Assembly (NCBI GenBank): GCA_037349105.1
Contig: JAYJMM010000070.1
Span: 806,001-870,000 of the forward strand
From: Limnomonas spitsbergensis
Taxonomy: Eukaryota; Chlorophyta; Chlorophyceae; Chlamydomonadales
Length of the DNA stretch: 64,000 bases
Direction: 5' to 3'
This document shows, one piece after another, positions 3,001-56,256 of this stretch (its first letter is position 1; each line of letters starts with the position of its first letter). Below the pieces are notes generated by a model. The model worked only from the letters and a program-made list of their open reading frames with translations, was not told where the DNA came from and made no database searches. Both the position numbers and the translations under genes were made by a program.

Positions 3001-3370
3001 CATCCATTCATGGTATGCTCCATCTAAAATTTGATTGTGTTTGCAGGGTGACAAGGACGCTATTGCGAAGGCTGCGGCAGAGAGCCGGTACGCCGCTGCG
3101 TTAAAGAACCCTGAGGAGATCGAAATCGACCTGGAGGCCGGTGGAGACGAAGGGGGTGAGGAAGAGCCAGCTGCGGACGAGCAGGCCGGGGATCGGGCAG
3201 ACTACCGCGCGGAGCTGCAGACCAAGCAGATACCTTCGGCAGTGTTTGGCTCGCTTGCTGGCAAGGCAGCGGCGGAGCTTGAGGCTGACGCGGCGGCGGC
3301 GGCTGAGGCGGCAGAGGCTGAGGCCAAGGTCGGGGCGCTTGACAGGTTCAAGAAGAGGCGTGTGCAGTAG
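1..3370 (+). CDS. SYF1: Pre-mRNA-splicing factor SYF1/XAB2, C-terminal part (5' end outside window)
   Basis: Spliceosomal scaffold protein of the Prp19/NineTeen complex, built of HAT (half-a-TPR) helices; acts in the nucleus. Four exons with consistent phase: 456-602, 1312-1568, 1913-2156, 3047-3370, giving 323 residues to a TAG stop. Visible hallmarks are the HAT stretch YALLEEQHGLAKHAMEVY, then REIYECAM, LGEIDRARAI, HGNEDTFREMLRIQRS, the conserved FVSAGVIQ segment, an acidic linker (EIEIDLEAGGDEGGEEE), IPSAVFGSL and a basic tail ending RFKKRRVQ, all in the order known for plant and animal SYF1/XAB2. The N-terminal HAT repeats must lie left of base 1. Introns carry duplicated splice-junction sequence (separate entries). 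Identification is from recalled family sequence and is strong; exon edges are inferred from GT/AG and phase. Confidence 0.9.
171..350 (+). repeat. Two decayed copies of a SYF1 3' splice site and exon start
   Basis: The real acceptor and exon start lie at 421-500 (CACACAAGCC, pyrimidine tract, CTGCAG, then TATGCCCTGCTGG). A diverged copy sits at 171-262 with the same CACACAAGCC, pyrimidine tract and TTTTGCAGTA. A second piece at 301-350 repeats GGAGCAGCATGGCTTGGCCA almost exactly and would read EQHGLAKVASEVYERAH. Neither copy continues into a full exon. I read them as tandem duplications of the junction inside the intron. Confidence 0.7.
603..780 (+). repeat. Diverged tandem copy of the SYF1 5' splice site at 603
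   Basis: The exon ends at 602 in GGCAAG followed by GTGGGCGGGGAGCAGGGAGG. A related block at 683-712 reads CTGGCAAGGTGGAGGGCGGG and again runs into GGGAGGGTTTAGGG. Further GGGAGG/TTAGGG pieces continue to about 780. The intron's first part is therefore a degenerate repeat of its own donor region. Confidence 0.5.
1548..1830 (+). repeat. Tandem copies of a SYF1 exon end and 5' splice site
   Basis: The true exon end (TTTAGGGAGATGTTGCGCAT, donor at 1569, then GAGGGGACAGGCCCT) is repeated at 1645-1692 (TAGGGAGATGTTGCACATTC, then GAGGGGACAGGCCCT). A third partial copy at 1725-1750 keeps AGGTGAGTGGACAGGCCCTG, and GCGATGTTGCACATTCTGTA recurs near 1801. The spacing is about 80-100 bases. The third copy carries a stronger-looking GTGAGT donor than the true site. 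Confidence 0.75.
2157..2470 (+). repeat. Repeated donor-like blocks in SYF1 intron
   Basis: After the exon end GTGATTCAACAG the donor is GTGGGTGG. Related CAG/GTGG blocks follow: GTGTACAGCAGGTGGATG near 2207 and near 2281, TCATCCAGGTGGTGGGTG near 2318, and GAGTGATTCAGCTAATGG near 2449. These look like diverged copies of the junction. The rest of the intron to 3046 has short ATGCCCCATCCAT repeats and a GATTGTGT(TTGC)AGGGT duplicate of the next acceptor (2944 against 3034). Confidence 0.5.
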
Positions 3371-30879: not shown

Positions 30880-31332
30880 CTACTTAACCGCAGAAGCTTG
30901 CGGGGCATGGTATTTAGGCAACCCACCACCACCATCCATGCTGAGCCTTTGCTTCTGACGGTGCCTTTGCATCTGGTAAAACCGGGCGGTGAGCACTTCG
31001 ATTTCTTCCTGAAAGCGCTGTTCCGTCGCAGCATCAAGGTAGTTCTCAAGCGAGGCTGCATAAGTGTACAATTGAAGCTCTAGCCTTGGAATTAGGATTG
31101 ATAGATCCTCCTCGTTGATGTCAGGGAGCCTAAAGTGAAAATACTCGATCTGTCTCCGCTTCATGAACTGGCGGTGGATGGCATCGCACATTGGAACGCG
31201 CCACAAAGAGGGCCTGCTACCAGGATATTGGCCGGGTGCCGCTGCTGCTGCTGAGAAGCGACCATTAGGTTGGCCCAGCGTTGCTGTTGCTGCAGGTGGG
31301 GGGCTGCAGCAAGGTCTCAAAAGGGTCGACAT
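30880..31332 (-). CDS. Single KIX-like domain protein
   Basis: Uninterrupted ORF of 150 codons from an ATG. An alanine/proline-rich N-terminus leads to one module: LWRVPMCDAIHRQFM, then LSILIPRLELQLYTYAASLE and NYLDAATEQRFQEEIE. It lines up with both modules of the ORF at 36045-37199. The pattern of an I/L-x-x-LE-x-x-LY-x-x-A-x-SL-x-x-Y core followed by a helix resembles the KIX fold of MED15/CBP-type coactivators, which bind activation domains. The C-terminus is Gln/Arg-rich, then Gly-rich. A transcription-coactivator role is inference. No intron seen; it may be one exon of a longer gene. Confidence 0.6.
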   Translation of the reverse strand: MSTLLRPCCSPPPAATATLGQPNGRFSAAAAAPGQYPGSRPSLWRVPMCDAIHRQFMKRRQIEYFHFRLPDINEEDLSILIPRLELQLYTYAASLENYLDAATEQRFQEEIEVLTARFYQMQRHRQKQRLSMDGGGGLPKYHAPQASAVK

Positions 31333-39182: not shown

Positions 39183-42100
39183 TCAGTACGGGAAGGAGAT
39201 GCTGGTGTAAATGTCCTGGAGGTCTGTGGACGAGGTGTTGGCTGCCATGGCGAGCATCATCACAATGCGCGCTTGGAAGGCATCCAGATTGAGAGCCTCC
39301 ACGACACCCTACACAGGAGGAGCGGTGCGAGGATTAAGGTTTAGTGATGGGGTCTCGAGCTTACTATTTGTTACATCATATTTTGGGGGGATAAATTCGT
39401 AGAAGTTCAGCAGGGCCTCCACGACGCTCTAAGCAGGGAGAGTCAGCAAGGTGAGGGGGAAACCGTGGCAGAGGTTTTTGAAGGGTTATTCACATGGGTC
39501 AAGGGTAAGCCACATGGGCTGAGGTTTGAGTCACGGAAGGGGGTGCATCAAATATGTCTGAATATGAAATTTGCCAAGGTTGAGGGCTCTTTACAAGGTG
39601 TTGGCAGAGGAGGGGGAGAACTCGTGGCAAAGGGAAAGAGGAGAATAAAACTACGGGCTGAAGGGGAGTGAGGGTTGAGGGAACAGTGCGGCATGGGCAA
39701 GGTTGAGGGATTCCACGAGTCCACGGTGCACCGCTCAGGAGCTGGGCAGAGGAGGGGCAGGAATCGAGGCTGGTAGGAGTAGAAAAACTAACGCCCCACA
39801 GGGGCGTGAAGGTTAAGTGAACTGCGTGACCGACGCCTAGTCCGCGCTGATGGCTCATATCAGGTATGACTAACTAAGGGTTCTGACGCACCCTCGGTAC
39901 TCGTGTGAAAGGGGCCTATGCCCCGGCTGCCCCGTTTGCTGAATCCTCTCTACCCTGCTAGGCGTGGTTTTGTTTGAAACGTTCTATCAGGAGCCGCACC
40001 TGTAGAACGAGGTTATCCAGGCAGCCTTGGCACCCGTAGTCTGGGGCAGTGACACCGCTGTTTGGCTTCCTGTAGTGATAGTAAAAATGGTGGTTGGTTT
40101 ACTGTAAGGAGTGGCAGGTGATCTGCGGTCAGTCAGGGGCACTGACGCGCTGTCAGGCTTCCTGTGGTGATAGTAAGAAATGGAGGCGGATGTTTAACAG
40201 TTGGGAGTGGCGGTTGGTTAGCAGTTAGTGGGGGACAGTGACACAGACGTCTGGCTTCCTGTGGTTTAGTCAGACATTGTGGTGGTTGGTTGACAGTTGG
40301 AAGTGGCAGTTGGTTAGCAGTTAGTGGGGAGCAGTGATGCCGCTGCCTGGCTTCCTGTGGTCATAAATGGTGGCCATTGGTTCACCATTCGTTGGGAGCC
40401 GGGGCACTGCTGTTCAGCTTCCTGCGGTCATTGAGGGCCAGGGGTCATAGCCAACTTAAACAGCATCGGGTCAACGGGCATGATTCAGGTTAAGATCGGC
40501 AAAAGTATTCAAGTTGCCGTCAGATGAGTAAGATGACACAACCATCTGGCTTCCTGTTGTCACGGAGGTCAACGGGGTGGCGGTTGGCAAACAAGAGCAG
40601 AGGCGGTTGGTTGAGAGTTGGTGATGGTTCATTCTGAAAGGGTTGACAAATGCTGCACGTCAGAAGATTTTTATATTTGAAACCTCACTGTGGGCTTGTG
40701 AATGCATGATCTGTGGCAGACTTGCGGTTCCTAGCAAAGTAGCAGTTACCGACAGTTGTTGGCAGTCTTTAGCAGTAACTAGGGGATTATGGCAGTTGCT
40801 AGCTGAAGGACACTCACCTGGCAACGACCACCTGGAAGGATGGTGCAGTGGCCAGCAGAGTTGAGACACCAGAGGCAAGGCCGAGTCCGATGTTGCCAGA
40901 ACCGAGACCTTCAATGACAAGTCCCACATGGTCCCTATGTGTGGGAGCAGCAGCCAAAGTGACAAATGTTTATTTCAGCTTGCACCAGACCACGTGGCCA
41001 GGCTGCTGTGCCGCTAGCACTGGGCCCATGGGGACCAGACCTGGACCGGTCTATGGCCGTTTGCCCAAGCAGCAGATCTTGCTGCACCAGCCCCCCGGGC
41101 CTCTGCAGTTAGTTATGCAGCTGATCTGTTGCTGAATCACCCTAAATAAGCATTGCCCTGATCACGAAGAGATCGGAAGCAGGCCGCACAGGCAAATGCA
41201 AGTGAAATAAATGACATGCAGCTGTCCTGTCTGTGTGATCCTGGATAAGTCATACCTAGCCTAGCCTGGCCTGCCTAGCCAAACCTGCTATAACAGCTTA
41301 GCCTGCCCAGCCTGCTGAGCCTACCTGGCCTCACCTACCTGGCCTAGCCAGCCTGACCCAGCCTACCTGGCCTAGCCTTCCTGGCCTAGCCTACATGGTC
41401 TAGTCTACCCTGCCTAGCCTTCGTAGCCTAACTAGCCTAGTCAACCTGCCTATCCTACCTGGCCTGGCCTACCTAGCTTAGCTTGCCTAGCCTACCTAGC
41501 CTACCTGGCCAGGCCTACCTATTCCTGCCCGGCCCGGTTCAGACCTACGTAATATAATAGAAGGCCATGAGGTCTGCCGAGGCGCCGGGGTAGGCAGGCT
41601 GCAGGCCGATCAGCGGCAAAGCTGTTGATGGCATGGGAAACCCGCCGTTGATGCCGCAAATGATCGCGCCCTTTAACTCGAAGTATTGGACAAACCTGCC
41701 ATCATAAGGAAGGAGATGAGGGAGGAAGGGGTGGGGATGATGTGGCAGTGGGAGGGAGCACTCTGTCAGCACTACAGGACTGGGCGTGAAGCGGGGGAAT
41801 GGCCAAGTGCTCACGGGACGGGAAGAAGGGGTTGCGGGACAGGGGTCAGGACGGTGCATCTTGATGCAAATGTAACTCTCTCATGACCCGCCCCTGCCAT
41901 TCACCGCACTGCCATTGAAGCCGACTCCATTCACGCAAATATAACCAACACTAAGGGCCCTAACAGAATCCAGAAGCCCCTTCCCTTACAGGGCAATCCA
42001 CAGCCTGCGTCTTGATGACCCCATGATAGCCAGGAAATGCTAGCGGACCAAGGTTTGGCCCCAAACAGCCTCACCAGGTAACTCTAAATGACGCGCACCT

Positions 42101-44803
42101 GCCATTCGCCACATTGTATATGATGCCACCCCCATTGCCGCTGATTCAACAATATCATACCTGAATTCATTTGTAGGCCTCCTGCACTCTTTCTCCATAC
42201 ACCCAGGCGCAGCCCTAATCATGACCGACGACCCGCACCTGCCATTGACCACATTGCCAATGATGCCACCACCATTCACGCTTCCGAAGGCGGCGTTGCT
42301 GTTGGCGGACACCTTGGTCACAAAGCGCGACGAGTATACCTGGTTGGGAGGAGGTGCGGCAGCAGGATAATGTGAAACATGGTGGGAACTAGTGAAATAG
42401 GTCTGGTGGGCGGCCCGGGGGTGGGCGAGGCATGCAACTGTGTCATGCAGAAGGATGAGGGATGAGACATGAGGGATGAGGGCCATGTGATTCCCTCGAT
42501 GTTTTGCGATGACCCATAACACTACCATTAGTTAATACGCACTCTGTTTATTGCAGGGCTTTGGGTTAGAAACGATTGGTTAGCAACATAACACAAGATA
42601 AACGCACACGATGCTCCGTTAGGGTTCAGGATTTAGGGTCTGGACTCTGGACATGGCTGCTGTGAAACTGCCTCATGCTGCTAGGCCACACAGAATCCAG
42701 ACATTCGCATCATCAGAGAAACGTGCCTACAAGGTCCGTGCTTTGAGGGGGGAGGGCACACGCATCTCACCTGCTGTGCAAAAGCGACCAGCACGCCCAG
42801 GCCGGATGCTTGAGGGCTTGAGGCCACAACAGACGCGGACAAGATGTTGCCGGGGCCATCAGCAAATCCACTGTCTGCGCCATTCATGGCACCCGTCAAG
42901 ACAACAGGCTTGTCTTGGTTACCGATGCCGAGGATGCACTGCGGGCAAATAGAGGGAGAAGGCACAAGGAAGCGTGGCTTTTGAGGCAGGAAGGATACCT
43001 GTAGGTGTGGAACGAGATCATGATGGGTGATCTAGCCTAGATCACCCATCAACGGGAGCAGGTAGAAAATCGGAAGAAGGGTGACGAGCGTATGCTCAAC
43101 CAGCCCAGACTTTAAGCTGACAGGACAAGGCAGTGGCTATGAGTCCATGGCCTGCCACAGGGCCTACGGCACCTGCTCCGGAACTAGCCTCCTTCTTTAA
43201 GGGCCCAGGGTGTCTGCTCCGCAAGCAGCCCTCCTTCTTGCAGGGCCTAGGATGCCTGCTTTTAAACCAAATCTCCCTTAAGCAGTGCCTAAGGTGCCTG
43301 CCCCCAAACCAAGCCTGCTCCCTGCAGGGCCTGATGTGCCACTCTAGGGTCAGCCAGCGCACCTACCTGCAGAATCCATGTTGTCTGCTCCTGAACCAGC
43401 CCTCCTACCGACCAGGCACATGGTGCCTGATCATGAGCCAGCTCTGCAACCTGCAAGATCCTTGCAGTCCACTGCTCCGGAACCAGCCCCTCTTACCTGC
43501 AGAAACCAGGCGGTCTGCTCCAGAGTGTCGGTGCCGTGAAGGATGACGACGCCATCAACCTCCTCCAGCGCCAGCTGCTGAAGGGTGAGGTTGGCGACGG
43601 CCATCCAGAAGGCTACAGCAGGGAACTAAGTTTCTTGGTTTTTTAGTGCAATTTGCCTACAATTCGGCTGTAGTTCAGCTACATCAGAGCCTTCGACCGG
43701 GGAGGTCTGGTGCAGCATGCCCTGCTGCTAGCGCCACCATCCTTAATTCCTTATGTAGGCCGGTCAAGGTTTGGCCCTCATCGGCCGATGGATGGTTGCC
43801 CCAAAATATCCTTATATGCTCTGGTGTGCACTAAAATGAACACTGAGAGTGAGGGTGGGCAACGGCCACCTAGAAGGCTGCAACTGGGAGGAACAAATAT
43901 TAAAATGTATCCCACCAGTCTTTATGACTCGTCTGCGCGGCTTCATTCCTGTCTGGAGGGTCACAGCGGGATTGTGGGCCATCTAATTTTTGAGCGCCAA
44001 TATATCAACGTTATCTTAGGAGATACAGATTAAATTGTTAAAACATATCAATGATATAATAAGATTTGCGTCATCCAACCAAATAGCTTAAATGCAAGGT
44101 TTCCTTCGCGCATCATTCCTGCTAGAAACGCACCATGCACGCACCCATGCACGGGGGAACGCACTCGGTGTGTTCGACACGTCTAACGAACCGAAGTCGG
44201 GCTCTGAGTGTCTGCCTGACTGCCTGACTGCCTCACTGGATAACTATGCAGGGGATGTGGTGCCATCGTGGTGGGGGGGAGCTGCCTATCGCATGCATTT
44301 TTGTGGCATTTACATGGTATGGCATTTTCATGGTATGGCATTTTCATGGTATGGCATTTACATGGTATGGCATTTACATGGTATGGCATTGATGACATGG
44401 TATGGCATTTACATGGTGTTGCGGTGGACGAGTCGATCTTGGCAGCGGCGTAGATGCCGCTGACGTTAATGAAGGAATCCAGCCCGGGCACCGAAGCAAG
44501 AAGGCTATCGCCGTCTGTGGCTGGGATGAGCGTCCCATGGGGACCTTGGATGCTCGCGATGGTGCCACCGGTCGTGATGAACGCGATGCGGGGGAGCGTG
44601 ATGTTGCCCATGGGCGTGTCGTTGACGACGACTTGCAGCACCGAGCGGCTTTGAGGCAGGGCGACATCGATATGTTGCGGAAGGTGATGGAGATTCCTAG
44701 CGAGGACTGCGGATGGGGGGCAGATCGCTAGGGCAGCGACCAGGACGATCATCACACATCGCAATACGCCTTCTGATATCATGTTATGATGACTGGCGGG
44801 CAT
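39183..44803 (-). CDS. Secreted bacterial-type (type II) L-asparaginase
   Basis: Hydrolyses L-asparagine to aspartate and ammonia. Exons 44803-44413, 43612-43497, 42938-42771, 42339-42239, 41695-41549, 40934-40818, 40069-40000, 39308-39183 join in phase to 411 residues. A hydrophobic signal sequence at about 12-35 ([19 protein letters not shown]) targets it to the secretory route. Family motifs: ITTGGTIAS with nucleophile Thr81; [12 protein letters not shown] with Thr158-Asp159; [10 protein letters not shown] with Lys179, completing the Thr-Asp-Lys triad; [42 protein letters not shown]-terminal [14 protein letters not shown]. All key residues are present. The closest relatives I know of this form are bacterial periplasmic enzymes, so an old transfer is possible. 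An ATG at 44782 is an alternative start. Exon 7 is short and sits in a field of decoy acceptors, so its choice is the least certain. Confidence 0.9.
39308..39735 (-). repeat. Decoy copies of the asparaginase exon 8 acceptor and exon start
   Basis: On the minus strand the exon begins GTAG then GGTGTCGTGGAGGCTCTCAA. Diverged copies upstream read GAGCGTCGTGGAGGCCCTGC (about 39,412-39,431) and GACTCGTGGAATCCCTCAAC (about 39,686-39,710). Neither extends through the rest of the exon. Confidence 0.6.
40000..40560 (-). repeat. About six tandem copies of the asparaginase exon 7 acceptor
   Basis: The real junction reads ACTACAG then GAAGCCAAACAGCGGTGTCA (exon start 40069). Upstream on the minus strand, CACAGGAAGCC-type copies occur near 40,163 (GAAGCCTGACAGCGCGTCAG), 40,260 (GAAGCCAGACGTCTGTGTCA), 40,358 (GAAGCCAGGCAGCGGCATCA), 40,424 (GAAGCTGAACAGCAGTGCCC) and 40,557 (GAAGCCAGATGGTTGTGTCA), spaced about 65-135 bases. 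Each retains an AG acceptor. Only the last before the exon leads into a full open exon with a proper donor. Confidence 0.8.
40960..41135 (-). repeat. SINE-like dispersed repeat, copy D
   Basis: The plus strand reads TGTTTATTTCAGCTTGCACC, CCATGGGGACCAGACCTGG, AAGCAGCAGATCTTGCTGCA and CAGCCCCCCGGGCC, matching copy C block by block in the same orientation. It lies in asparaginase intron 5, just upstream of the exon 6 acceptor. Confidence 0.65.
41254..41530 (-). repeat. Degenerate short tandem array next to the asparaginase exon 5 donor
   Basis: The minus-strand unit is about 10-15 bases, such as GTAGGCTAGGCCAGG. The array begins about 20 bases from the donor AC/GTAGGTCTG at 41548. Units repeatedly carry GTAGG, the donor's own first bases. 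Copies are uneven in length. Confidence 0.7.
41881..42290 (-). repeat. Three tandem copies of the asparaginase exon 4 end and donor
   Basis: Plus-strand view: the real exon end and donor at 42226-42290 (ACCCGCACCTGCCATTGACC ... CCACCACCATTCACGC) is copied at 42088-42148 (GCGCACCTGCCATTCGCCAC ... CCACCCCCATTGCCGC) and at 41881-41937 (ACCCGCCCCTGCCATTCACC ... CGACTCCATTCACGC). The period is about 140-205 bases. Both intronic copies keep a donor-like CAG/GTGCG or CAG/GGGCG on the minus strand. Confidence 0.8.
43143..43520 (-). repeat. About eight 43-bp copies of the asparaginase exon 2 end and donor
   Basis: On the plus strand each unit runs (C)CTGCTCC...ACCAGCC(C)TCCT...CTGCAGGGCC...GGTG. The unit that contains the true exon end is the rightmost (ACTGCTCCGGAACCAGCCCC, TCTTACCTGCAGAAACCAGG). 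Going into the intron, seven more diverged units follow end to end. The donor is retained best in the unit at about 43,360 (CACCTACCTGCAGAATCC). Confidence 0.8.
43640..43860 (+). repeat. SINE-like dispersed repeat, copy E
   Basis: Best-preserved block order: AGTTCAGCTACATCAGAGCC, TCTGGTGCAGCATGCCCTGC, GTCAAGGTTTGGCCCTCATC, GTGCACTAAAATGAACACTG. It lies in asparaginase intron 1, opposite to the gene. Confidence 0.7.
44305..44413 (-). repeat. 16-bp tandem repeat starting at the asparaginase exon 1 donor
   Basis: The minus-strand unit is GTAAATGCCATACCAT, about seven copies, some with GAAAATG in place of GTAAATG. The exon ends ACACCAT and the donor GTAAATG opens the first unit, so each unit restates the junction CAT/GTAAAT. 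Confidence 0.8.
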
Positions 44804-45907
44804 GTTGGACTGGTGGTGCTTGGACAATTGCCGACGATCGGTTCGGTCTGGGATTCTCTTTCCAGCAAACAGTGAAACGCGGTAACGTGATGCCGCCTTC
44901 AATATGGACTATGGGGGCACGCCTGTTTACTAAAGGTCGAAATTTGCTATTAGTCACCCATCGCTGTAATCAAGTGTCGCACCGTCCGAGAGTCGCATCA
45001 TGCGGTCATCAGAGGAGAGTACTGCGGACTCAACGATGCTCAGGATAGCTGACCGCACAATGTTCGCGGATTACGCACGTACTGCTTTATTTTAACATGA
45101 AAGTCTGCTCTGGGTCTCGTATGGTCGAACGAGCCAGTAAGATGTAACGCGCAAGGACTGGCCCTTGGGTGAGTAGTACCACCCGGGGCGGGGCACAGTT
45201 ACAATTCGAATTGTTCGGATGCTGATATCGAACTAAAAACCCCAGAGTTTATTTCAGGCCGCGACATCATTTTGTGCACACCTAGCACACTAAGCACACC
45301 TTACTACCTTAGACAGACCGCTGGGTAGCCACCACTGGCCCGTTCATTGGAAGCCAAACGTTATACCGATTTCTGCCGGGGTCCCAACTAAGTAGCAACT
45401 GTGTGGGGGAGGTTGGTGGGGGAGGGCTTGATGTAGGAGCCCACGACCGCATGCCATAATTTAGCTGCGTTGTAGCTTAAGCACCATAGAACAATCAGCG
45501 CAGTTGACTTGTTAGGTTCTTGTATGTTTCCTCTTGCCGCATTCTCATATCTGAACCCAAATTTTTTCAACCAAACATTCAAGCGCCAAGCTGAGCATTT
45601 ACTTTTTTAGCATGGCCCTCATTCACCTACCATAGGGTCCCCATTATATTTCCCTGCGCTTTGCCCTGCCCCATCCCTGACCAGGCTTCGGCTATCTTCT
45701 CATGCCTTAACAATTACCCCTCGCATTACCTCCCCCCTCAGTCTAACCTTAGCAGTGAGGCAACAGGCCAGCAACCGAGCTCGGAGGCTGGGTGAAGGGA
45801 AGCAACCGAAAGTAACGGAGAAAACCGTCAGCAACCGTAACTCCGTACTTGTGAATTGTGATGGCCGACAGCGGCTTTCGTTCTCCCAGTCTCCGAGCGC
45901 ATTACAG
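44804..45907. promoter_or_regulatory. Shared intergenic region of the asparaginase and dipeptidase genes
   Basis: About 1.1 kb between two divergent starts (44803 on minus, 45908 on plus). No clear TATA box or known motif identified. The arrangement allows a bidirectional promoter; this is inference from position only. Confidence 0.45.
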
Positions 45908-48900
45908 ATGAAAAGAATGCCATGCTTGATTCTGTATGTTGCCATACTGCTGCTGCTCGCCGGTCATCTGGTCCAAGCGGACAGCGTCGTTAGCGATATC
46001 GAGGCAGCTTTCCTACGACTCGACAACGAGTACATGCGAGACATCGAGGAGCTTGTCGGTAAGATTGCGCCTGTGCACGCATCTATAATAATGTTCAGTA
46101 TTGCTGGGCGCATGGCACGAATGACGTGACGCGCCAATGGCGTCATTTATGGATAGATGCCCACCTCACATGCCGAAAAAGAACTTACATACAATTGCAT
46201 GAAAGTCTAGGACATGCAGACAATGCATTGACGGCAATCCTGTCGTCTGTGAATCTCGACTAGCGGACGGGTTGGCCCGCATCAGCAGCAGTGGACCCGC
46301 CACGTCAGAGCAACCTTTCCTGCCGAAGAAATCAAATAAACTGAAAAAATAACACATTTCAGTAAAGAGGGATGCAACCAGAGCCTATCTTTAGGCTTAA
46401 GCTGCCTCTTGTCCAACCTATTTCCCCCCCCGTCCCTTCCTGGCCAGGCATCCCCAGCATCAGCGCTCTGCCAAATCACCAACCAGACATCATGCGGGCG
46501 GCGCAATGGCTTGTTGACAGACTGCAGCGCGCAGGCATGGAGGTGCCCTGCTTCACAAGCATGCTGCCATGCAAGGAGGGACTGTGCAGTGCATCAAAGC
46601 CATGCTGTCATGCATGGCTCATCCACCGTGCACGTATGTGCCATGCATCTCCTTGCCATGCTCATGGTTGTCATGGACCTACTTTCCATGTTAGCATGCA
46701 TCTTCTCGACAGGCTGTCATGCACCTCCTGGCTGTGTTGTCATGTACCTTCTTGCCCTGTCCATGCTTATCATGCAGCCACTTGCCATGCATCTGCTTGC
46801 CATGTTCCCATGCAAGCACCTCCGCAACCCCTGACCTTGCCACCCTATCACCCCTGAGCTTAGAATGTCAAGGTGTATGGAACGGAGGGACCCCACCCTG
46901 TGGTCTACGGTGACTGGCTGAAAGCCGGATCTGGCAAGCCCACCGCTCTCATCTATGGGCACTACGATGTACAGGTAGGCACTCCGATGTACAGGTTTTA
47001 TCTACCTCCCTGTCATGTCTGTCATCTGAATGCATGCCAGTACCAATTATTACGCAATCATCGCTAAATAGCCCCGGCCTGCTCCGCCCCGTCCCGCTCC
47101 ACGCCTCTCCGCCCCCCCTCGCACATGCACTGGTGCTCCTTCTAGCCAGTGGACCCTCTTGATGAGTGGGAGAGCCCGCCCTTCAACATGACGGTGCGGG
47201 ACGGCTACATGTACGGCCGCGGAGTGGATGACGACAAAGGAGGCGTGCTCATGGCTATACAGGTGGGGCGCTATGATGGCAAAAGGCTCTCAGTATGATG
47301 CGCCATACAGTGCCTACCTTCAGGTTATCCAATCAATAGCAGACTCATGGTAATGTAGTACTACTGGAAGGGCCGATTTATGGCCTCTTTTAGGCTTCAC
47401 GTGTTTTCGATATGTGTGATTGTTGTGTTTCAGTGATTACGGCTGCTCATGGGCTGCATGCCTGCGTGGCGCCCAGGACTGGCTTTCGTTGTCACTTGGC
47501 TGTTGCTTCACAAGGCTGCTGCTCAGGGTTTAGGGTTCAGGAGGGTTCATTCCACGATGAGTGTGCTGGGTTAAAACTGGAAGGATCAGTGAGAAGGGTC
47601 TAGGGTCAAGAGATCGGCAATTGTCCTGTTCAATGAAGCACAATACAGCACAGTACGGGGCACAGTACAGCACAGTACGGGGCACAATATAGCACAGCAT
47701 GGGGCACAATACAGCACAGCACGGGGCACAAAACAGCCCAGCACGGGGCACAATACAGCACAGCACGGGGCACAATACAGCACAGTACGGGGCACAATAC
47801 AGCACAGCACGGGGCACAATACAGCACAGCACGGGGCACAATACAGCACAGCATGGGGCACAAAACAGCCCAGTACGGGGCACAATACAGCACAGCACGG
47901 GGCACAATACAGCACAGTACGGGGCACAGTACAGCACAGTACGGGGCACAATACAGCACAGTACGGGGCACAATGCAGCACAGTACGGGGCACAATACAG
48001 CACAGTACGGGGCACAATACAGCACAGCACGGGGCACAATACAGCACAGCACGGGGCACAATACAGCACAGTACGGGGCACAATACAGCACAGTACGGGG
48101 CACAATACAGCACAGTACGGGGCACAATACAGCACAGCACGGGGCACAATACAGCACAGCACGGGGCACAATACAGCACAGCACGGGGCACAATACAGCA
48201 CAGCACGGGGCACAATACAGCACAGCACGGGGCACAATACAGCACAGTACGGGGCACAATACAGCACAGCACGGGGCACAATACAGCACAGCACGGGGCA
48301 CAATACAGCACAGCATGGGGCACAAAACAGCCCAGTACGGGGCACAATACAGCACAGCACGGGGCACAATACAGCACAGTACGGGGCACAGTACAGCACA
48401 GTACGGGGCACAATACAGCACAGTACGGGGCACAATGCAGCACAGTACGGGGCACAATACAGCACAGTACGGGGCACAATACAGCACAGCACGGGGCACA
48501 ATACAGCACAGCACGGGGCACAATACAGCACAGTACGGGGCACAATACAGCACAGTACAGGGCACAATACAGCACAGTATGGGGCACAATACAGCACAGC
48601 ACGGGGCACAATACAGCACAGTACGGGGCACAATACAGCACAGTACGGGGCACAATGCAGCACAGTACGGGGCACAATACAGCACAGTACGGGGCACAAT
48701 GCAGCACAGCACGGGGCACAGTACAGCATAGTACGGGGCACAATGCAGCACAGTACGGGGCACAACGCAGCACAGTACGGGGCACAATGCAGCACAGTAC
48801 GGGGCACAACGCAGCTCAGTACAGGGCACAATACAGCACAGTACGGGGCACAATACAGCACAGTACGGGTCACAATACAGCCCAGCACGGGGCACAATAC

Positions 48901-51900
48901 AGCCCAGCACGGGGCACAATACAGCACAGTACGGGGCACAAAACAGCACAGCACGGGGCACAATACAGCACAGTACGGGGCACAATGCAGCACAGTACGG
49001 GGCACAATACAGCACAGTTCGGGGCACAATACAGCACAGTACGGGGCACAATACAGCACAGTACGGGGCACAATACAGCACAGTACGGGGCACAATGCAG
49101 CACAGCACGGGGCACAATACAGCACAGTACGGGGCACAATACAGCACAGCACGGGGCACAATACAGCACAGTACGGGGCACAATACAGCACAGCACGGGG
49201 CACAATACAGCACAGCACGGGGCACAATACAGCACAGCACGGGGCACAATACAGCACAGCACGGGGCACAATACAGCACAGTACGGGGCACAATACAGCA
49301 CAGTACGGGGCACAATACAGCACAGTACGGGGCACAATGCAGCACAACACGGGGCACAATACAGCACAGTACGGGGCACAATACAGCACAGTACGGGGCA
49401 CAATGCAGCACAGTACGGGGCACAATGCAGCACAGTACGGGGCACAATACAGCACAGCACGGGGCACAATGCAGCACAGCACGGGGCACAATGCAGCTCA
49501 GCTCCAGCGGGATTGGATTATACCAACAATGCTGTCAATAATGCAGAATGTGGCACAGGTTTAGCCGGATTGTGCTACCATGGTCCTTTGGTCCAGGCGA
49601 CAAGGCAGGCAGGATATGTGGCTTTACCGCCAATGGGGCGCATCTGGTACGTGGGGCACTGAAGGGCATCGCAAAGGCGCTTCATAACTGCACAATTGTA
49701 TAAATGCACAGCTGCATACCTTTACCTTTATAACTACATAGCTTCATAATTGCATACCTTTCTAATAGCAAAACTACAAACCGGTAGCGCCTTCAGAATT
49801 CCATGTCTTCTATACTCCCATTATCTGTAGAAGCACGTGACCCTTCCCTGGCTGCGTTATCCAACAGGCCGTGGAGGCACTGGTGAAATCTGGAGAAGGA
49901 GGCGAGGGTGCCAGCGGGGGCGCGACAGGCCTCCCGCTGAACATTAAGTTCATGCTTGAAGGGCAGGTGGGCGAGGGGCCACTGGTGCAGCCTCTGTTGA
50001 TACATCTTAGCAGCCATTTTGGAGTGCAGCCCTTGGGTCATAAAATGCGCATTACTCTTCGCCTCCATCAGCTGAAATCTGATAAGCAATGGGGGGGGTA
50101 AGAGCTGACGGTAGGCCATGATGCCGCTGAGTGGTAGTTGGAGCACTCAGCGGCATAGTGCTAATGAACTTGTCCAGCCCCCCTGGGTCGCCTCATCCAT
50201 GCAGGAGGAGGTGATGAGTCCGCAGTAGGCTATAGCTGATTGTAGCTGAGGCACTTTGCATTGTAGCTGAACTGTTATTGAAATGTCTGAGCACCTAGAG
50301 GGAGGTGATGAGCCCTGATGTGGGTGACATCCTCACAGCAGCAGGCCCTGATATAGCTGAATTGTAGTTAAATTGTAGCTGGATTGTTTTTGAATTGTAG
50401 CTGAAGTGTTGCTGCATTGTAGCTGCATTACCTGTGAGCATAGAAGTAGGCGATGAGCTTTAACGTAGCAGCTTTCATGAGGCAGCAGTATGCCGTGATG
50501 TAGCTGAATTATGAGGCAGCAGTATGCCGTGATGTAGCTGAATTATGAGGCAGCAGTATGCCGTGATGTAGCTGAATCATGAGGCAGCAGTATGCCGTGA
50601 TGTAGCTGAATCATGAGGCAGCAGTGAGCCGTGATGTAGCTGAATCATGAGGCAGCAGTATGCCGTGATGTAGCTGAATCATGAGGCAGCAGTGAGCCGT
50701 GATGTAGCTGAATCATGAGGCAGCAGTATGCCGTGATGTACCTGAATCATGAGGCAGCAGTATGCCGTGATGTAGCTGAATCATGAGGCAGCAGTATGCC
50801 GTGATGTAGCTGAATCATGAGGCAGCAGTATGCCGTGATGTAGCTGAATCATGAGGCAGCAGTATGCCGTGATGTAGCTGAATCATGAGGCAGCAGTATG
50901 CCGTGATGTAGCTGAATCATGAGGCAGCAGTATGCCGTGATGTAGCTGAATCATGAGGCAGCAGTATGCCGTGATGTACCTGAATCATGGCTGAACCATG
51001 GATGAACTGAAGCTGTACTCTCCTGTTCATGTGCCCAGGAGGAGGTGATGAGCCCCGACGTGGCGGCCTTCATGAGCCAGCACCGCACGATGCTGGCGGC
51101 AGACTTCTGTTTGTCAGCGGATGGGCGGCAGGTGTCTGACAAGCTGGGCGGTGTGCTGACAGGGATCAGGTGGGCACCGGGTGTGTGCTTGCAGGCATGG
51201 GTTATAAGTATGAAATCATTTCGTTCATACTGCATGAATGGCTATCTTCAAGTAGTTGCATTGACTGTCTGCTAGGGGTCCATGTCTGACTGTATAGGGA
51301 CATAATGGGGCATGTTTGGTTTTGAGTGCAGGCAGCATCTGGGAGCAGCATGCGTGGGGGCTGCATGCATGGGGGCAGCATGCATGGGGGCAGCATGCAT
51401 GGGGGCAGCATGCATGGCGGCAGCATGCGTGAGGGCATCATGCATGGGGGCATCACACATGGGGGCATCACGCATGGGGGCATACTTTTGTGAGTTTGTA
51501 TGCGGTCTCATGAGGGGACCATGCATGGGGGCATGTAGGACTACATGCTTGGGGATATTGGAAACCACAAACATGGGGGAGCAAGCGGATGGCTTTTGTA
51601 CGTCTGAGTCCGCACAGTATGAAGCAGATTGGACTTCTCCAGGGTCAGATGAAGTGCAAGCTAAAAATAACTGCTTTTGTTAGCCTGCTTCTATTGGGCT
51701 AGGCAAGGTGATAGAGCTTAGAGATTTTTTCTTTGGTGGTCTGGTCTTGACACACACCTCCAATCTATACATCCAAAGCCCTGGAAAAGTTATCATGGGT
51801 TGCCCCAGGTGTTCACCGCTGAGCCTTAACAACCCAGTACTGTTTGCAGGGGCATCTCCAGTATGCAGGTTGAGGTTACGACAGCCGCCACCGACATGCA

Positions 51901-54900
51901 CAGCGGCATCCTAGGTGGAAGTGTGTCCAACTCCAACCATGTGAGTACAGAGGGTGAGGGCAGGGCATGAGGTTCAGGGGGTGAGGGCAGGGCGTGGGGG
52001 TCAGGGGGTGAGGGCAGGGGGTGAGGCCAGAAGGTGAGGCCAGGGGGTGAGGCCAGGGGTGAGGGCAGGGCATGGGGTTCAGGGGGTGAGGGCAGGGCGT
52101 GAGGGTCAGGGGGTGAGGGCAGGGGGTGAGGCCAGAAGGTGAGGCCAGGGGGTGAGGCCAGGGGTGAGGTCAGGGCATGGGGGTCAGGGGGTGAGGCCAG
52201 GGGATGAAGGCAGGGCATGGGGGTCAGGGGGTGAGGCCAGGGGGTGAGGCCAGGGGGTGAGGCCAGAAGGTGAGGCCAGGGGTGAGGCCAGGGGTGAGGG
52301 CAGGGAGGTGAGGACAGGGGGTGAGGGCAAGGGGTGAGGGCAGGGGGTGAGGTCAGGGGGTGAGGACAGGGGGTGAGGACAGGGGGTGAGGACAGGGGTG
52401 AGGACAGCGGGTGAGGACAGGGGGTAAGGACAGGGGGTGAGGACAGGGGGTGAGGACAGGGGGTGAGGACAGAGGGTGAGGACAGGGGGTGAGGACAGGG
52501 GGTGAGGGCAGGGGGTGAGGACAGGGGATGAGGGCAGGGGGTGAGGGCAGGGGGTGAGGACAGGGGGTGAGGACAGGGGGTGAGGACAGGGGGTGAGGCC
52601 AGGGGGTGAGGACAGGGGGTGAGGACAGGGGGTGAGGACAGGGGGTGAGGACAGGGGGTGAGGACAGGGGGTGAGGGCAGGGGGTAAGGGCAGGGGGTGA
52701 GGGCAGGGGGTGAGGACAGGGGATGAGGGCAGGGGGTGAGGGCAGGGGGTGAGGACAGGGGTGAGGACAGGGGGTGAGGACAGGGGGTGAGGACAGGGGG
52801 TGAGGACAGGGGGTGAGGCCAGGGGGTGTGCACTTGCATATGTTTGGATCATGGTTGAGATGTCCTCGGAGCTGCCAGAATCCTGGCCTGGCCCAGGTAC
52901 AGGGCTGGACCCTAACCAAGCACAGGACTGGATCCTGACCAAGCACAGGGCTGGACCCTGACCAAGCACAGGACTGGACCCTGACCAAGCACAGGGCTGG
53001 ACCCTGACCAGGCACAGGGCTGGACCCTGACCAGGCACAGGGCTGGACCCTGACCAGGCACATGGCTGGACCCTAACCAAGCACAGGGCTGGTCCCTGAC
53101 CCGGCACAGGGCTGGTCCCTGACCCGGCACAGGGCTGGACCCTGACCAGGCACAGGGCTGGACCCTGACCAGGCACATGGCTGGACCCTGGCCAAGCAAA
53201 GGGCTGGACCCTGACCAGGCACAGGGCTGGACCCTGACCAGGCACAGGGCTGGACCCTGACCAAGCGCAGGGCTGGACCCTGACCAGGCACAGGGCTGGA
53301 CCCTGACCAGGCACATGGCTGGACCCTGACCAGGCAGAGGGCTGGACCCTGACCAGGCAGAGTTCTGGACCCTGACCAGGCACATGGCTGGACCCTGACC
53401 AAGCACAGGGCTGGACCCTGACCAGGCACAGGGCTGGACCCTGACCAGGCACAGGGCTGGACCCTGACCAGGCATAGGGCTGGACCCTGACCAGGCACAG
53501 GGCTGGACCCTGACCAAGCACAGGGCTGGACCCTGACCAGACACAGGGCTATACCCCTGACCAAGCATAGGGCTGGACAGGGCTGGGTCCATGCCCAGCT
53601 TGCATGGCCATATCCTGAGACATATCGCGGAATGGGACTTTCAGCCTAGGTAGCTTGGGCAAGGAATGTCATCTTATGATCCCTCGCTAGTTCAGCGGAC
53701 GCACGACCTCGCCATGGTAGGTGTGAGCACCTACCTGAGAAGTGTAAATGCTGGGTTGTCACTCAAGCGATCTAGCGGTGCTGTCTGGTGTGACCCATGA
53801 CTATAATGTGTGTGATGTTTGACCCTTCGTGTGTGACCCATGGCATAAGGTGTGATGTGTGACACACCATGCATAAAGCACTGTGTGTAATGTGTGACCC
53901 ATCATGCGTCAAGCATCGTGTGATGTGTGACCCATCATGTGTGACCCCCCCTGAACAGGTGCTGACTCAGCTTCTGGCTGGCCTACATGACCCAGTCACC
54001 GGCCGCATCAATGTCGAGGGCTTCTATGATGTGGGTTGGGGATGCTGGTGTTTCAGATGCAAAACAGTTTGTGATGATGAGTTGTCAGATCCAAAAGTTT
54101 GTGTCACTAGCGTTTCAGATGCAGAAGTTTACCGTGAACAGTTTTTGATGAGGGCGTTGATGTTCTGTTTACTAAAAGAGGTTTATTGCCATGCGGTGCA
54201 GACATCGAAGCTGATTTGTAACAAATGTGATTTGTTACTAGATCCTGCAGAAGGTCTGGACCATCCGCACCCTCCTACCCTCTCCTCCACTGTCCACACT
54301 TCAACCACCTGACAGGACGTGGAAGAGATGTCTGCTGAGGATGTGGCTGATGTGGCGGCCTATGTTTACGATGAGGAACAGGAAGCGTCACAGCTTGGTG
54401 TGCTGGCCTTCCATGGGGAACAAGGTTTCGGCACCCTTGAAAGGAGGTGCGAGCGGGATGCATGCGGGGTGGCTGGAGGTGAAGGCTTGGAGAACCACCA
54501 CAAACGCTGCTCTACAATTTCGGCCTGTTCAAATGTGCACCCCCCTATGTACTGCCAAACCCCACCCCCTACAACGCAAGCTCTACCGTATTCTGAAAGC
54601 TAGGCGATACAAAACATAAACTAGGTCTGTGCTAATGTACTACCAGATCCCGTCTGTGCTAATGTACTACCAGATCCCGTCCCCCCCATATTCACAATCT
54701 GCTCTATCATCTTAGCATAACGGGATTTCAAACTGTCTCTTTCTCCATCTCAATCAATCATGCAAAATCATAAAAATGTCTCCCCTGCTTGATCTGTAGG
54801 TGGCATCGCCCCACCCTCGAGGTTGTGGGTATGCAGGGAGGCTTCACAGGCAGCGGCATCAAGACGGTGGTGCCCCGCTCAGCCTTCGCCAAGCTGTCCT

Positions 54901-56256
54901 GTAGGCTAGTGCCCGGGCAGCTGCCTCTGGCTGTCTTTGAACAGGTGGGCCATTGTCAAGCTGTACTACCGGCGGGTGCCCGGACAGCTGCTTCTGGCCG
55001 TCTTTGAAAAGGTGGGCCTTGTCAAGCTGTACTGCGGGCTGGTGCCCGGGTGGCTGCATCTGGCCATTGTTGAAAAGGTGGGTGCTCCTGATCCTACGGA
55101 GGGTGTCAAACTTGGTATGATACCTGCGAGACCTGGCGTAACGCCCCGACGTGGAAACAGGAACCTTTGAATTTGTTGAGGCGAAGTTTATCAAAAAGTG
55201 CCTTGAGTGCTGACCCTGACGGTCTGACCTCACATCCCGTCATTCAGACGCTTGTCCACCCAAGTGAGTCTGAAATCCTAGACGCAAAAGCTCCTGGATG
55301 GATCCGCTTTGTAATTAGCCATGATTGGCAAATCTCTCCGATATAGATCTCCGATCCTGCCCCGTGGTGTGCAGATGGAGGCGTATGTCATAGATCTCTC
55401 TGATCTAGATCTCCCTGACCCTGCCCGGTGTGTGTAGGTGAAGACTCATATCATGAGCCATGCTCCTAGCCATGCCAACGTGACCGTGACGCGGCTTGGA
55501 GGCGGTGCGGTGGCCTGGTCCTCTCCCCGTAGTACGCCGGGGAACCGGGCAGCGGCCAGGGTCGCGGAGCAGATCATGGGCGTACCTGCCCTGTGGCATC
55601 GGTGAGCCAGGGCTCAGTAGGAACCTGAGTTAGCTCATTATCAGGTGAATATATAACCAGGCTTGAAGCATGGTAAGATGAGAGACCACACATCTTTTAC
55701 ATGTGCGTGAGCATTGTTTGATAGGAAAGTACCAGTGTGCATGATTGTATGAAAAAAATAAGCAGTAAGAAAACAAGATGGGAGCCTGAGGCATCATTTT
55801 TGTTTCACAAAGGCCTGCTTGTTTATTCAGGATGCTGCACCGGTAACTGGACAGGCTGTGCATACAAAAGCCATGGCAGCCACTTGGCCAGGACATTTAG
55901 ACTCGGGGGCCACGGCCTTCACATCCTTTTCACTCTCCTGTCCATCGATAAATGCCCTGACGACCCGCCGCCTGCTTGCATGTCTGAACCGCAGAGACGG
56001 CGGTACGATCCCTGCCCTTTCGCAGCTTCAGGCGGTCCTAGGCATGCCCACCACAGTGTTTGGGTGGGGCCTGGGCGAGAGGATCCACGCGCCTAACGAG
56101 CGCCTCAAGCTGGAGATGTACAGCAAGGGAAGGCGTGCCTGGGCGCGGCTGCTGCTGCTGCTGGGGGAGGGCGAGGCGGGAGGTGCGGCTGATGGAGGTC
56201 CGGCCGCTGCTGAGGCTGTGGCTGAGGCTTCAGAGGCTGGTCACGATGAGTTGTAG
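45908..56256 (+). CDS. M20-family metallodipeptidase (CNDP/DUG1-like) with signal peptide and C-terminal HDEL
   Basis: Di-zinc dipeptidase hydrolysing dipeptides, probably in the ER lumen. Exons 45908-46058, 46448-46542, 46864-46974, 47146-47262, 49868-49966, 51039-51169, 51850-51940, 53959-54030, 54316-54446, 54800-54944, 55438-55601, 55995-56256 join in phase to 522 residues. The N-terminal signal peptide contains [18 protein letters not shown]. Zinc and catalytic motifs: LIYGHYDVQ (His about 115), [10 protein letters not shown] (Asp about 148), LEGQEEV (glutamates about 189-193), [10 protein letters not shown] (His about 252), RDGGTIPAL and RIHAPNER (His about 467), in the family's usual order. 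The protein ends GHDEL, a standard ER-retrieval signal. Length fits the family (about 475-510) plus a signal peptide and an Ala/Gly tail. Introns are extraordinarily repeat-rich (separate entries). An ORF running upstream of 55995 is intron; the phase favours the acceptor at 55994. Confidence 0.9.
46543..46820 (+). repeat. Irregular CATGC-rich repeats in dipeptidase intron 2
   Basis: Loose units such as TGCCATGCATCTGCTTGCCA and GTCATGCACCTCCTGG recur about ten times. The donor reads GGCATGGAG/GTGCCCTGCTTC, and CATG/GCCCTGC/CTTC words of that junction recur in the units, but the relation is less clear than in other introns. Confidence 0.55.
47636..49500. repeat. 22-bp minisatellite, about 85 copies, in dipeptidase intron 4
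   Basis: The unit is CACAATACAGCACAGTACGG plus GG. Variants are T/C in GTACGG or GCACGG, CACAATGCAG, CACAAAACAGCCC. No unit holds a stop in any frame, so all six frames are open over most of 1.86 kb, giving spurious ORFs up to 653 codons. A higher-order duplication of 462 bases (21 units) is visible: the variant run GCATGGGGCACAAAACAGCC occurs at 47,851 and 48,313 with the same flanking variants. It lies wholly within intron 47263-49867. Confidence 0.95.
50199..50474 (+). repeat. Decoy copies of the dipeptidase exon 6 acceptor and exon start
   Basis: The real junction is GTGCCCAG then GAGGAGGTGATGAGCCCCGA (51039). Copies read GCAGGAGGAGGTGATGAGTC (about 50,201), AGAGGGAGGTGATGAGCCCT (about 50,298) and GAAGTAGGCGATGAGCTTTA (about 50,443). 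The last continues into GTAGCAGCTTTCATGAGG, matching the exon's GTGGCGGCCTTCATGAGC. Confidence 0.8.
50475..50988 (+). repeat. 34-bp minisatellite, about 15 copies, resembling the dipeptidase exon 6 start
   Basis: The unit is TCATGAGGCAGCAGTATGCC plus GTGATGTAGCTGAA. The downstream exon at 51,070 reads TTCATGAGCCAGCACCGCAC then GATGCTGGCGG, so the unit is an amplified relative of exon bases about 31-62. Copies are very uniform, implying recent expansion. The array runs straight on from the decoy copy at 50,443. Confidence 0.9.
51335..51482 (+). repeat. 15-bp minisatellite, about 9 copies, in dipeptidase intron 6
   Basis: The unit is GGGGGCAGCATGCAT. The array opens with TGCAGGCAGCATCTGGGAGC, which resembles the next acceptor and exon start TTTGCAGGGGCATCTCCAGT at 51,843-51,862. 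Some later units change to GGGGGCATCA. Confidence 0.85.
51941..52828 (+). repeat. 13-bp minisatellite, about 68 copies, starting at a dipeptidase 5' splice site
   Basis: The exon ends AACCAT at 51940 and the intron opens GTGAGTACAGAGG, which is itself the first unit. The consensus of the array is GTGAGGACAGGGG with G/C/A variation at the seventh base (GAGGGCAGG, GAGGCCAGG). Nearly every unit therefore carries a GTGAG donor-like core. Larger blocks of about 115 bases are also duplicated near 51,955-52,170. ORFs of up to 445 codons on the minus strand here are artefacts. Confidence 0.95.
52905..53600 (+). repeat. 23-bp minisatellite, about 30 copies, in dipeptidase intron 7
   Basis: The unit is GGCTGGACCCTGACCAGGCA plus CAG, with an A or G at CCAAGCA/CCAGGCA. 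It follows the 13-bp array in the same intron. The next acceptor reads CCCTGAACAG then GTGCTGACTCAGCTTCTGGC and TGGCC; CCTGA-CAGG and GGCTGG are shared, so it may come from that acceptor, with lower confidence than for the other arrays. Confidence 0.9.
53760..53950 (+). repeat. GTGTGACCCATCATG repeats before the dipeptidase exon 8 acceptor
   Basis: About seven irregular copies of a GTGTGACCCATCATG-like unit, 20-35 bases apart, ending in GTGTGACCCCCCCTGAACAG at the acceptor. The last unit includes the pyrimidine tract. Confidence 0.65.
54888..55084 (+). repeat. Three tandem copies of the dipeptidase exon 10 end with its 5' splice site
   Basis: Copy 1 is the real exon end: CCAAGCTGTCCTGTAGGCTA, GTGCCCGGGCAGCTGCCTCT, CTTTGAACAG/GTGGGCC. 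Copy 2 (about 54,953-55,017) and copy 3 (about 55,021-55,084) repeat it with TCAAGCTGTACT, GTGCCCGG and TTTGAAAAG/GTGGG. The period is 65-70 bases. All three keep a GTGGG donor. Copies 2 and 3 are in frame with each other ([20 protein letters not shown]) but not with copy 1. Confidence 0.9.
55345..55445 (+). repeat. Duplicated acceptor and exon start before dipeptidase exon 11
   Basis: The real site GATCTCCCTGACCCTGCCCG ... GTGTAG/GTGAAGACTCATATCATGAG at 55,410-55,457 is preceded at 55,349-55,392 by GATCTCCGATCCTGCCCCGT ... GTGCAG/ATGGAGGCGTATGTCATAG. The decoy keeps both the pyrimidine context and an AG. Confidence 0.75.

What the first reader, a model, noticed from the sequence alone, without database searches (positions are those of the whole stretch)
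39183..56256. Introns appear to grow by tandem duplication seeded at splice junctions
In three unrelated genes (SYF1, asparaginase, M20 dipeptidase) sequence spanning a true exon-intron border recurs in tandem on the intron side. It ranges from two or three diverged copies to arrays of dozens. Both donor-side and acceptor-side cases occur, and at least eleven introns show it. A mechanism that repeatedly copies splice junctions would create many decoy splice sites and would explain both the intron length and the minisatellite content. Known biology includes intron gain by tandem duplication of exon segments carrying cryptic sites; amplification of existing junctions as a general intron-growth mode is not something I know to be described.
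Basis: partly seen in the sequence, partly recalled or inferred. Interest (0 to 1): 0.9.

Follow-up and report, generated by a model that had tools for sequence, protein, structure and literature searches.

The report
Introns piled with copied splice borders
In a green alga's genome, 32 of 74 introns sampled outside the window hold a copy of their own exon-intron border, where chance would give about three; the copies likely come from a local DNA duplication process that largely ignores the border, which would let introns lengthen while filling them with decoy splice sites.

Summary
In SYF1, asparaginase and M20 dipeptidase, 14 of 45 borders (12 of 23 introns) have a copy in their own intron that beats every foreign border. 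In kinesin, CCT/Cpn60 and dynein genes elsewhere it is 41 of 148 borders, 32 of 74 introns; borders tested in foreign introns give 5 of 296. No inverted match reaches score 30; exon heads are copied upstream, tails downstream. 'Seeded at splice junctions' is not supported: border windows match their introns no more often than interior windows. Counted as repeat families the result is mixed: 5 of 24 touch a border against 4.6 expected from blind placement, but 9 of 24 are linked to an exon end by a sensitive match. I read this as local tandem duplication largely blind to the border, passed through a splicing filter. Acceptor-side units carry at least 37 intron bases (15 of 15), donor-side as few as 12 (post hoc). 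Decoy dinucleotides are not purged. The host is probably Limnomonas spitsbergensis. A new variant of known internal gene duplication; RNA data would settle decoy use.

The parts
456..3370 (+). SYF1 3' part: exons 456-602, 1312-1568, 1913-2156, 3047-3370
   Evidence: Pfam PF23231 2.5e-62; PDB 8xi2_I Syf1 1e-73
300..321 (+). upstream copy of SYF1 exon 456-602 head (source 469-490, 22 of 22)
1164..1177 (+). short copy of acceptor border 1311-1324
1652..1691 (+). copy of donor border 1549-1588 (offset 103)
39183..44782 (-). asparaginase gene, exons 44413-44782, 43497-43612, 42771-42938, 42239-42339, 41549-41695, 40818-40934, 40000-40069, 39183-39308
   Evidence: Pfam PF00710 4e-45, PF17763 2.3e-11
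44360..44382 (-). copy of donor border 44395-44417, within the 16-base array 44304-44417
43858..43889 (-). copy of acceptor border 43593-43624
43354..43394 (-). copy of exon 2 tail plus donor (source 43497-43524); weaker copies at 43178-43220 and 43223-43260, the last within shuffle range
42099..42136 (-). copy of exon 4 tail (source 42239-42276), offset 140
40148..40182 (-). copy of acceptor border of exon 7 (source 40056-40089); three copies counted in that intron
39412..39437 (-). copy of acceptor border of last exon (source 39292-39317)
45908..56256 (+). M20 dipeptidase gene, 13 exons: 45908-46058, 46448-46542, 46864-46974, 47146-47262, 49868-49966, 51039-51169, 51850-51940, 53696-53716, 53959-54030, 54316-54446, 54800-54944, 55438-55601, 55995-56256
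   Evidence: homologues; Pfam PF01546, PF07687
46978..46994 (+). copy of exon 3 tail (source 46958-46974), 20-base unit at the donor
50202..50221 (+). copy of acceptor plus head of exon 6, 19 of 20
   Evidence: 0 of 300 shuffles
50294..50340 (+). second copy of exon 6 acceptor and head
   Evidence: 0 of 300 shuffles
50435..50487 (+). third copy of exon 6 acceptor and head, running into the 34-base array
   Evidence: 0 of 300 shuffles
50475..50989 (+). 34-base array, 15 copies, that starts inside the exon 6 copy (exon-derived minisatellite)
51941..52828 (+). 13-base array, 68 copies, that begins at the donor of exon 7 and whose units resemble it (source 51941-51959, copy 52463-52481)
54993..55030 (+). 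copy of donor border of exon 11 (source 54926-54964); a third copy follows, unit 66-67 bases
55356..55391 (+). copy of acceptor border of exon 12 (source 55420-55454)

Best explanation
Introns of this alga likely lengthen by a local tandem duplication process that largely ignores the exon-intron border, and the units that happen to straddle a border would be kept because the outermost splice site still gives the same protein. Shown: direct, local, side-specific copies of borders in 32 of 74 sampled introns; a flat repeat profile across the border; decoy dinucleotides as intact as their flanks. Inferred: (1) duplication units are mostly 50-165 bases and fall in or across the intron edge without preference; (2) selection removes units inside exons and units that leave the outer site without its signals, so acceptor-side units need the branch point and pyrimidine tract (at least about 37 intron bases) while donor-side units need little more than the donor; (3) the captured exon piece is then neutral, decays, and can be amplified further into a minisatellite; (4) the spliceosome keeps using the outer site although intact inner copies exist.
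For: Swap test, 74 introns outside the window: own exon end against own intron at score 34 or more in 5 of 74 (donor) and 12 of 74 (acceptor), against 2 of 5402 foreign pairs each; reverse complement 0 of 74 and 0 of 74 at score 30. Sensitive statistic: 41 of 148 borders, 32 of 74 introns, calibration 5 of 296. Exon heads match upstream (19 of 168 at the edge) and tails downstream (12 of 169); the crossed tests at the edge give 0 of 169 and 0 of 168. Border not special; strict family count 5 of 24 against 4.6 expected (P 0.51; P 0.37 to 1.0 over eight threshold pairs in the independent set); 8 of 11 families of at least 95% identity show no link to the own exon ends at score 30. Shuffled introns 32 of 2860. 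No family lies wholly in the 100-base exon flanks of 96 introns. Geometry: acceptor-side intron part below 37 bases in 0 of 15, 6.9 expected from uniform breakpoints; with the 37-base filter the acceptor breakpoints fit a uniform law (KS p 0.54), without it p 0.0001. CTRAY motifs: 21 in the three bins 20-50 bases from the acceptor, 25 in the other nine bins (weak). Paralogues: the 59-base exon-tail-plus-donor array of L005 is not in L004; the 104-base acceptor repeat of L030 is not in L029, which has only an 18-base exon match at another offset. Of 21 border copies with an intact dinucleotide, use of 20 would shift the frame or bring a stop.
Against: Families linked to the own exon ends by a sensitive match are 9 of 24 at 90% identity, about twice the 4.6 expected, and 3 of 11, 12 of 30 and 15 of 33 at 95, 85 and 80% (expectations 2.0, 6.0, 7.0). 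Families found with exon bases included touch a border in 14 of 26 cases against 6.2 expected. I explain both by slower decay of the exon half and by re-amplified older copies, but measured neither. The strict rule misses border families whose border copy is diverged or gapped. A flat profile would also arise if interior repeats were old border copies pushed inwards. The 37-base acceptor limit was read off the same 15 events that support it, and donors show a deficit too (3 of 13 below 37, 7.2 expected) and fit a uniform law poorly (KS p 0.047 with a 12-base filter), which the filter idea does not predict. All introns rest on homology and GT-AG, not on RNA, and the scoring favours the site that keeps the protein unchanged, that is the outer one. 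Paralogue differences do not tell gain from loss.
Confidence: 0.58

Rival explanations
1. Junction-seeded amplification: something at splice junctions, such as paused transcription with R-loops, starts duplication there, and interior repeats are old border copies pushed inwards.
For: 9 of 24 families linked to own exon ends against 4.6 expected; 14 of 26 against 6.2 with exon bases used; an array starts inside an exon copy; 20 copies, the cap of the count, at one border.
Against: Border windows match no more often than interior windows at four thresholds; flat profile; strict count 5 of 24 against 4.6; 8 of 11 families of at least 95% identity without a link to the own exon ends.
Confidence: 0.22
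2. Intron-seeded duplication: existing intronic repeats breed new duplications by slippage or unequal exchange, and the process leaks a few tens of bases into exons.
For: Exon coverage fades within 60-90 bases; repeat content rises with intron length; exon reach over 50 bases is rarer than uniform breakpoints predict: 1 of 15 acceptor-side and 2 of 13 donor-side, 9.0 and 6.7 expected.
Against: 7 of 31 introns with a border copy have no other repeat family by intron bases; the acceptor breakpoints are uniform once the 37-base filter is allowed. Hard to tell from the best explanation with this sample.
Confidence: 0.22
3. Mobile elements (Introner-like) or dispersed copies brought the exon pieces.
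For: Introners are reported from rapidly evolving lineages such as green algae (PMC9860276, passages read).
Against: Only 3 of 96 introns have a match in an intron of another gene at E 1e-5, with short alignments of 33-76 bases; copies are direct, local and side-specific.
Confidence: 0.02
4. The copies are real alternative exons, or the gene models chose the wrong copy.
For: Models rest on homology only.
Against: Copies carry one border, and 33 of 36 reach at most 49 bases into the exon; 20 of 21 intact inner sites would break the frame; M20 and asparaginase give full uninterrupted conserved proteins.
Confidence: 0.05

Closest known systems
[quoted passage not shown] not held; content recalled, title seen in a reference list)
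   Same: Tandem duplication of segments inside genes, taking in exon and intron parts; splice sites are copied.
   Different: As recalled, there the stress is on new introns and latent sites; here existing introns lengthen, the outer site stays in use, and 32 of 74 sampled introns are affected.
Intron gain by tandem genomic duplication of an AGGT-bearing exon segment (Rogers 1989, Hellsten 2011; described in PMC3443670, passages read)
   Same: Tandem duplication makes a second splice site in register with the first.
   Different: No new intron inside an exon was seen; the duplicated piece straddles an existing border and goes into the intron.
Internal tandem repeats at exon-intron boundaries of human paralogues (De Grassi and Ciccarelli 2009, PMC2812944, passages read)
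   Same: Tandem repeats across exon-intron boundaries; the longer units in coding intron cases are 62-126 bases, like the 49-165 here.
   Different: 27 intron modifications among recently duplicated human genes, seen as novel introns; here a large share of introns of conserved genes, with the repeats inside introns and the protein unchanged.
Human introns from tandem arrays (Zhuo 2007; not held; content recalled)
   Same: Introns inside arrays of direct repeats.
   Different: As recalled, there the two ends of the intron match each other; here each end matches the intron interior.
Long introns of core-Reinhardtinia algae (Craig 2021, PMC8226300, passages read)
   Same: Related green algae with conspicuously long introns (median 198-343 bases); the authors leave the mechanism open and call it likely ancient.
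   Different: No tandem-duplication account is given in the passages read.

Membership tests
Internal (within-gene) tandem duplication | Copies in direct orientation close to the source | tested here: met
   reverse complement 0 of 74 and 0 of 74 at score 30; offset at most 165 bases in 26 of 34 events with 30 or more aligned columns
Internal (within-gene) tandem duplication | Presence/absence difference between related gene copies | tested here: met
   L005 against L004; L030 against L029, where only a weaker, different match exists; gain not told from loss
Intron gain by tandem genomic duplication | New intron position flanked by duplicated AGGT | tested here: inconclusive
   copies sit inside existing introns and no exon-only repeat family was found in 100-base flanks of 96 introns, but intron positions were not compared with other species
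Introner elements | Similar introns shared by many genes | tested here: not met
   3 of 96 introns with any cross-gene match
   no excess in windows, profile and strict family count; about two-fold excess in counts that use exon bases
Tandem repeats at exon-intron boundaries that alter splicing | RNA evidence of altered splicing | not testable with these tools
   no RNA reads available

The most novel reading that the evidence does not exclude
In this lineage introns grow outward through their own edges: border-straddling duplications keep feeding exon pieces and intact splice sites into introns, these become minisatellites, and the spliceosome copes by an outermost-site rule that ignores even many intact inner decoys. 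This would be the mechanism behind the long introns of volvocine algae.
Probability: 0.25. Interest if true: 0.8.

Novelty: new variant of a known kind. Interest (0 to 1): 0.55.

Why it matters
What drives the long introns of volvocine algae is left open in print (PMC8226300, passages read). If largely border-blind duplication with a splicing filter is right, it gives a countable, datable process for intron lengthening, predicts different minimum unit geometry at donors and acceptors, and offers natural competitions between near-identical splice sites in which mainly position differs. It also warns that gene finders and minisatellite annotation in such genomes will meet many intact decoys.

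Tried and rejected
Junction seeding: no excess in windows, profile and strict family count. A sharp 50-base limit of exon reach: first seen and suspected to be a footprint; the profile without my gap filter shows a taper, and the 37-base acceptor filter accounts for the acceptor events, so I do not claim a footprint; donors remain a poor fit. Purging of decoy dinucleotides: retained 0.93 (12 donor junctions) and 0.87 (16 acceptor junctions) against 0.86 and 0.86 in flanks, no purge seen. Introner origin: rejected. A first event description found only 10 events because the best local match was often an interior array; replaced (36 events). Dropped rows: 8 of 82 resolved introns failed the quality cut (margin, alignment or splice score; listed); exon pairs with a profile gap outside -20 to +14 were not resolved; events with offset of 200 or more, or 30 or less, were left out of the geometry tests (28 of 36 kept; 27 in the KS tests). 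Genes sampled: 20 of 47 kinesin places, 11 of 16 Cpn60/TCP1 places, 4 of 16 dynein places (places by my own grouping of the matches), chosen for several matched exons, the dyneins also for compactness, not for repeats. Papers: the searches gave listings; five papers were opened, none in full. In these searches I saw no report of border copies as a general mode of intron lengthening; most subscription papers are not held.

Full report
What was checked. The window is contig 70, bases 806001-870000, of a genome of 260,226,709 bases in 124 contigs. The published Limnomonas spitsbergensis assembly has 260,248,090 bases in 124 contigs (PMC11228838: outline, passages and the first part of the results read), so the host is probably that Arctic snow alga; the name is an inference from size and contig number. 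The closest named relatives of the M20 protein are green algae of that order.

Gene models. M20 dipeptidase: 13 exons, 12 GT-AG introns, one open frame of 529 aa. Asparaginase: 8 exons on the minus strand, 7 GT-AG introns, 404 aa. SYF1: four exons at the 3' end of the gene, which begins outside the window. Pfam and PDB searches agree with the three names.

The observation in the window. For each border I took three windows (last or first 40 exon bases, 25 exon bases, 20+20 bases across the border) and compared the best match in the gene's own intron with the match of the same window of every border from other genes in that same intron. 14 of 45 borders, in 12 of 23 introns, beat all foreign borders in at least one window type. 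One array can be traced to such copies: three copies of the M20 exon 6 acceptor and head lie at 50202, 50294 and 50435, each beyond 300 shuffles, and the last runs straight into the 34-base array at 50475.

The observation outside the window. Kinesin motor (PF00225, 139 matches), Cpn60/TCP1 (PF00118, 72 matches) and dynein AAA_6 (PF12774, 89 matches) exons were located in the genome. 35 gene regions were fetched, and introns were resolved by family profile, frame and splice score: 82 resolved, 74 kept. These genes were not picked for repeats. Own exon ends match own introns far more often than foreign exon ends do: 5 of 74 donor and 12 of 74 acceptor at score 34 against 2 of 5402 each, sum-of-scores z 11.9 and 21.6, and none of 74 in reverse complement on either side at score 30. 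Each of the three families shows it on both sides, z 3.2 to 11.7. With the sensitive statistic 41 of 148 borders and 32 of 74 introns are positive; the same statistic on borders put into foreign introns gives 5 of 296, so two or three of the 41 may be chance. A test that needs no intron model, on 173 exons, shows heads copied upstream (19 of 168 at the edge, 0 of 165 at 60 bases) and tails downstream (12 of 169, 2 of 166), with crossed controls 0 of 169 and 0 of 168 at the edge, and 2 of 166 and 1 of 165 at 60 bases.

Is the junction special? In 61 introns of 200 bases or more, border-spanning windows match in 8 (donor) and 12 (acceptor) at score 34; interior windows match in 24% (mean over introns) or 44% (pooled), and borders do not exceed interiors at any of four thresholds. 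The profile of repeat coverage is flat across both borders (donor about 0.14, acceptor about 0.20), rises deeper in the intron, and fades out 60-90 bases into the exon; shuffled introns give 1.1%. Counted as repeat families, the answer depends on recognition. Repeats found from intron bases only, with a border family defined by ungapped extension into the exon: 5 of 24 against 4.6 expected (P 0.51; P 0.37 to 1.0 over eight threshold pairs). The same families, with any match of score 30 between the own exon ends and the family's footprint: 9 of 24, foreign exons 4 of 1693; 3 of 11 at 95% identity, where 2.0 are expected. Repeats found with exon bases included: 14 of 26 against 6.2. Exon halves do not drift, so pairs that include them stay recognisable longer, and older border copies can be re-amplified inside the intron; both favour the higher counts, but neither factor was measured. 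So the data exclude a strong preference for junctions, not a two-fold one.

Geometry and a splicing filter. The distance between copies is at most 165 bases in 26 of 34 events with 30 or more aligned columns. If breakpoints were uniform, about 7 of 15 acceptor-side units would carry less than 37 intron bases; none does. On the donor side 3 of 13 do, two with 12 and 13 bases and one in an array, where 7.2 are expected. A downstream acceptor needs its own branch point and pyrimidine tract inside the unit; an upstream donor needs little more than its hexamer. CTRAY motifs are somewhat commoner 20-50 bases from the acceptor (21 in three bins, 25 in the other nine). With the 37-base filter the acceptor breakpoints are uniform (KS p 0.54); without it they are not (0.0001). 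The limit was read from the same data, so it is a prediction to test, not a result. Donor breakpoints are skewed in a way that the filter does not predict (KS p 0.047 with a 12-base filter).

Decoys. In 12 donor and 17 acceptor cases the copies retain the splice dinucleotide at 0.93 and 0.87, like their flanks at 0.86. Of 30 copies that carry the whole border 21 have an intact dinucleotide, and use of 20 of these would shift the frame or add a stop; the last is undetermined. So, if these models are right, the outer site must be chosen with some fidelity. L005 carries six intron copies of a 59-base unit with 46 exon bases and the donor; three of the six have GC in place of GT and one AT.

Age and growth. 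In two pairs of related genes (exon identity 0.81, from one exon, and 0.87, from six) one member has a border repeat that the other lacks; L029 has a weaker, different match. 5 of 7 intron pairs compared share at most 27 aligned bases. Direct repeats make up 36% of intron bases and the mean fraction grows with length: 5.8%, 9.5%, 19% and 43.5% over four length classes of the 74 introns. Cross-gene matches are nearly absent (3 of 96 introns), so transposons and Introners are not the likely source.

Verdict. Introns here likely lengthen by local tandem duplication that largely ignores the border, with a splicing filter. This is a frequent form of internal gene duplication (known), applied to existing intron edges. 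What is new, as far as the searches named above show, is the frequency (32 of 74 sampled introns), the exon-derived minisatellite, the unpurged decoys, and the predicted difference between donor-side and acceptor-side unit geometry.

Noticed in passing
47638-49501: 22-base array of about 85 copies in M20 intron 4 leaves several frames open on both strands (ORFs up to 689 aa), which a gene finder could call as proteins.
   Followed up: no
53696-53716: M20 exon 8 appears to be a 21-base microexon, next to the intron that holds the 13-base and 23-base arrays.
   Followed up: no
32789-33169: Fragment that matches reverse transcriptase (RVT_1, E 1.4e-11).
   Followed up: no
L029/L030, L004/L005, L007/L008, L033/L034: Pairs of related gene copies on different contigs; in the two pairs whose exons were compared they are 81% and 87% identical, and 5 of 7 intron pairs share at most 27 aligned bases, so introns turn over fast.
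   Followed up: partly
L037 intron 233-739; L005 intron 5235-6450; L027 intron 630-709 (coordinates on the gene's strand): Best models use GC-AG donors; the array in L005 intron 3967-4715 also holds GC versions of the copied donor.
   Followed up: no
36045-37211 and 30880-31353, minus strand: Two open frames share a motif like WHDPVRDAIHR (twice in the first, once in a weaker form in the second); no Pfam family at E 0.001.
   Followed up: partly
asparaginase intron 40935-41548, L011 intron 4648-5723, L037 intron 233-739: The only introns of different genes that match each other; the asparaginase one holds a CTAGGC-type array, the matching stretches themselves were not looked at.
   Followed up: no
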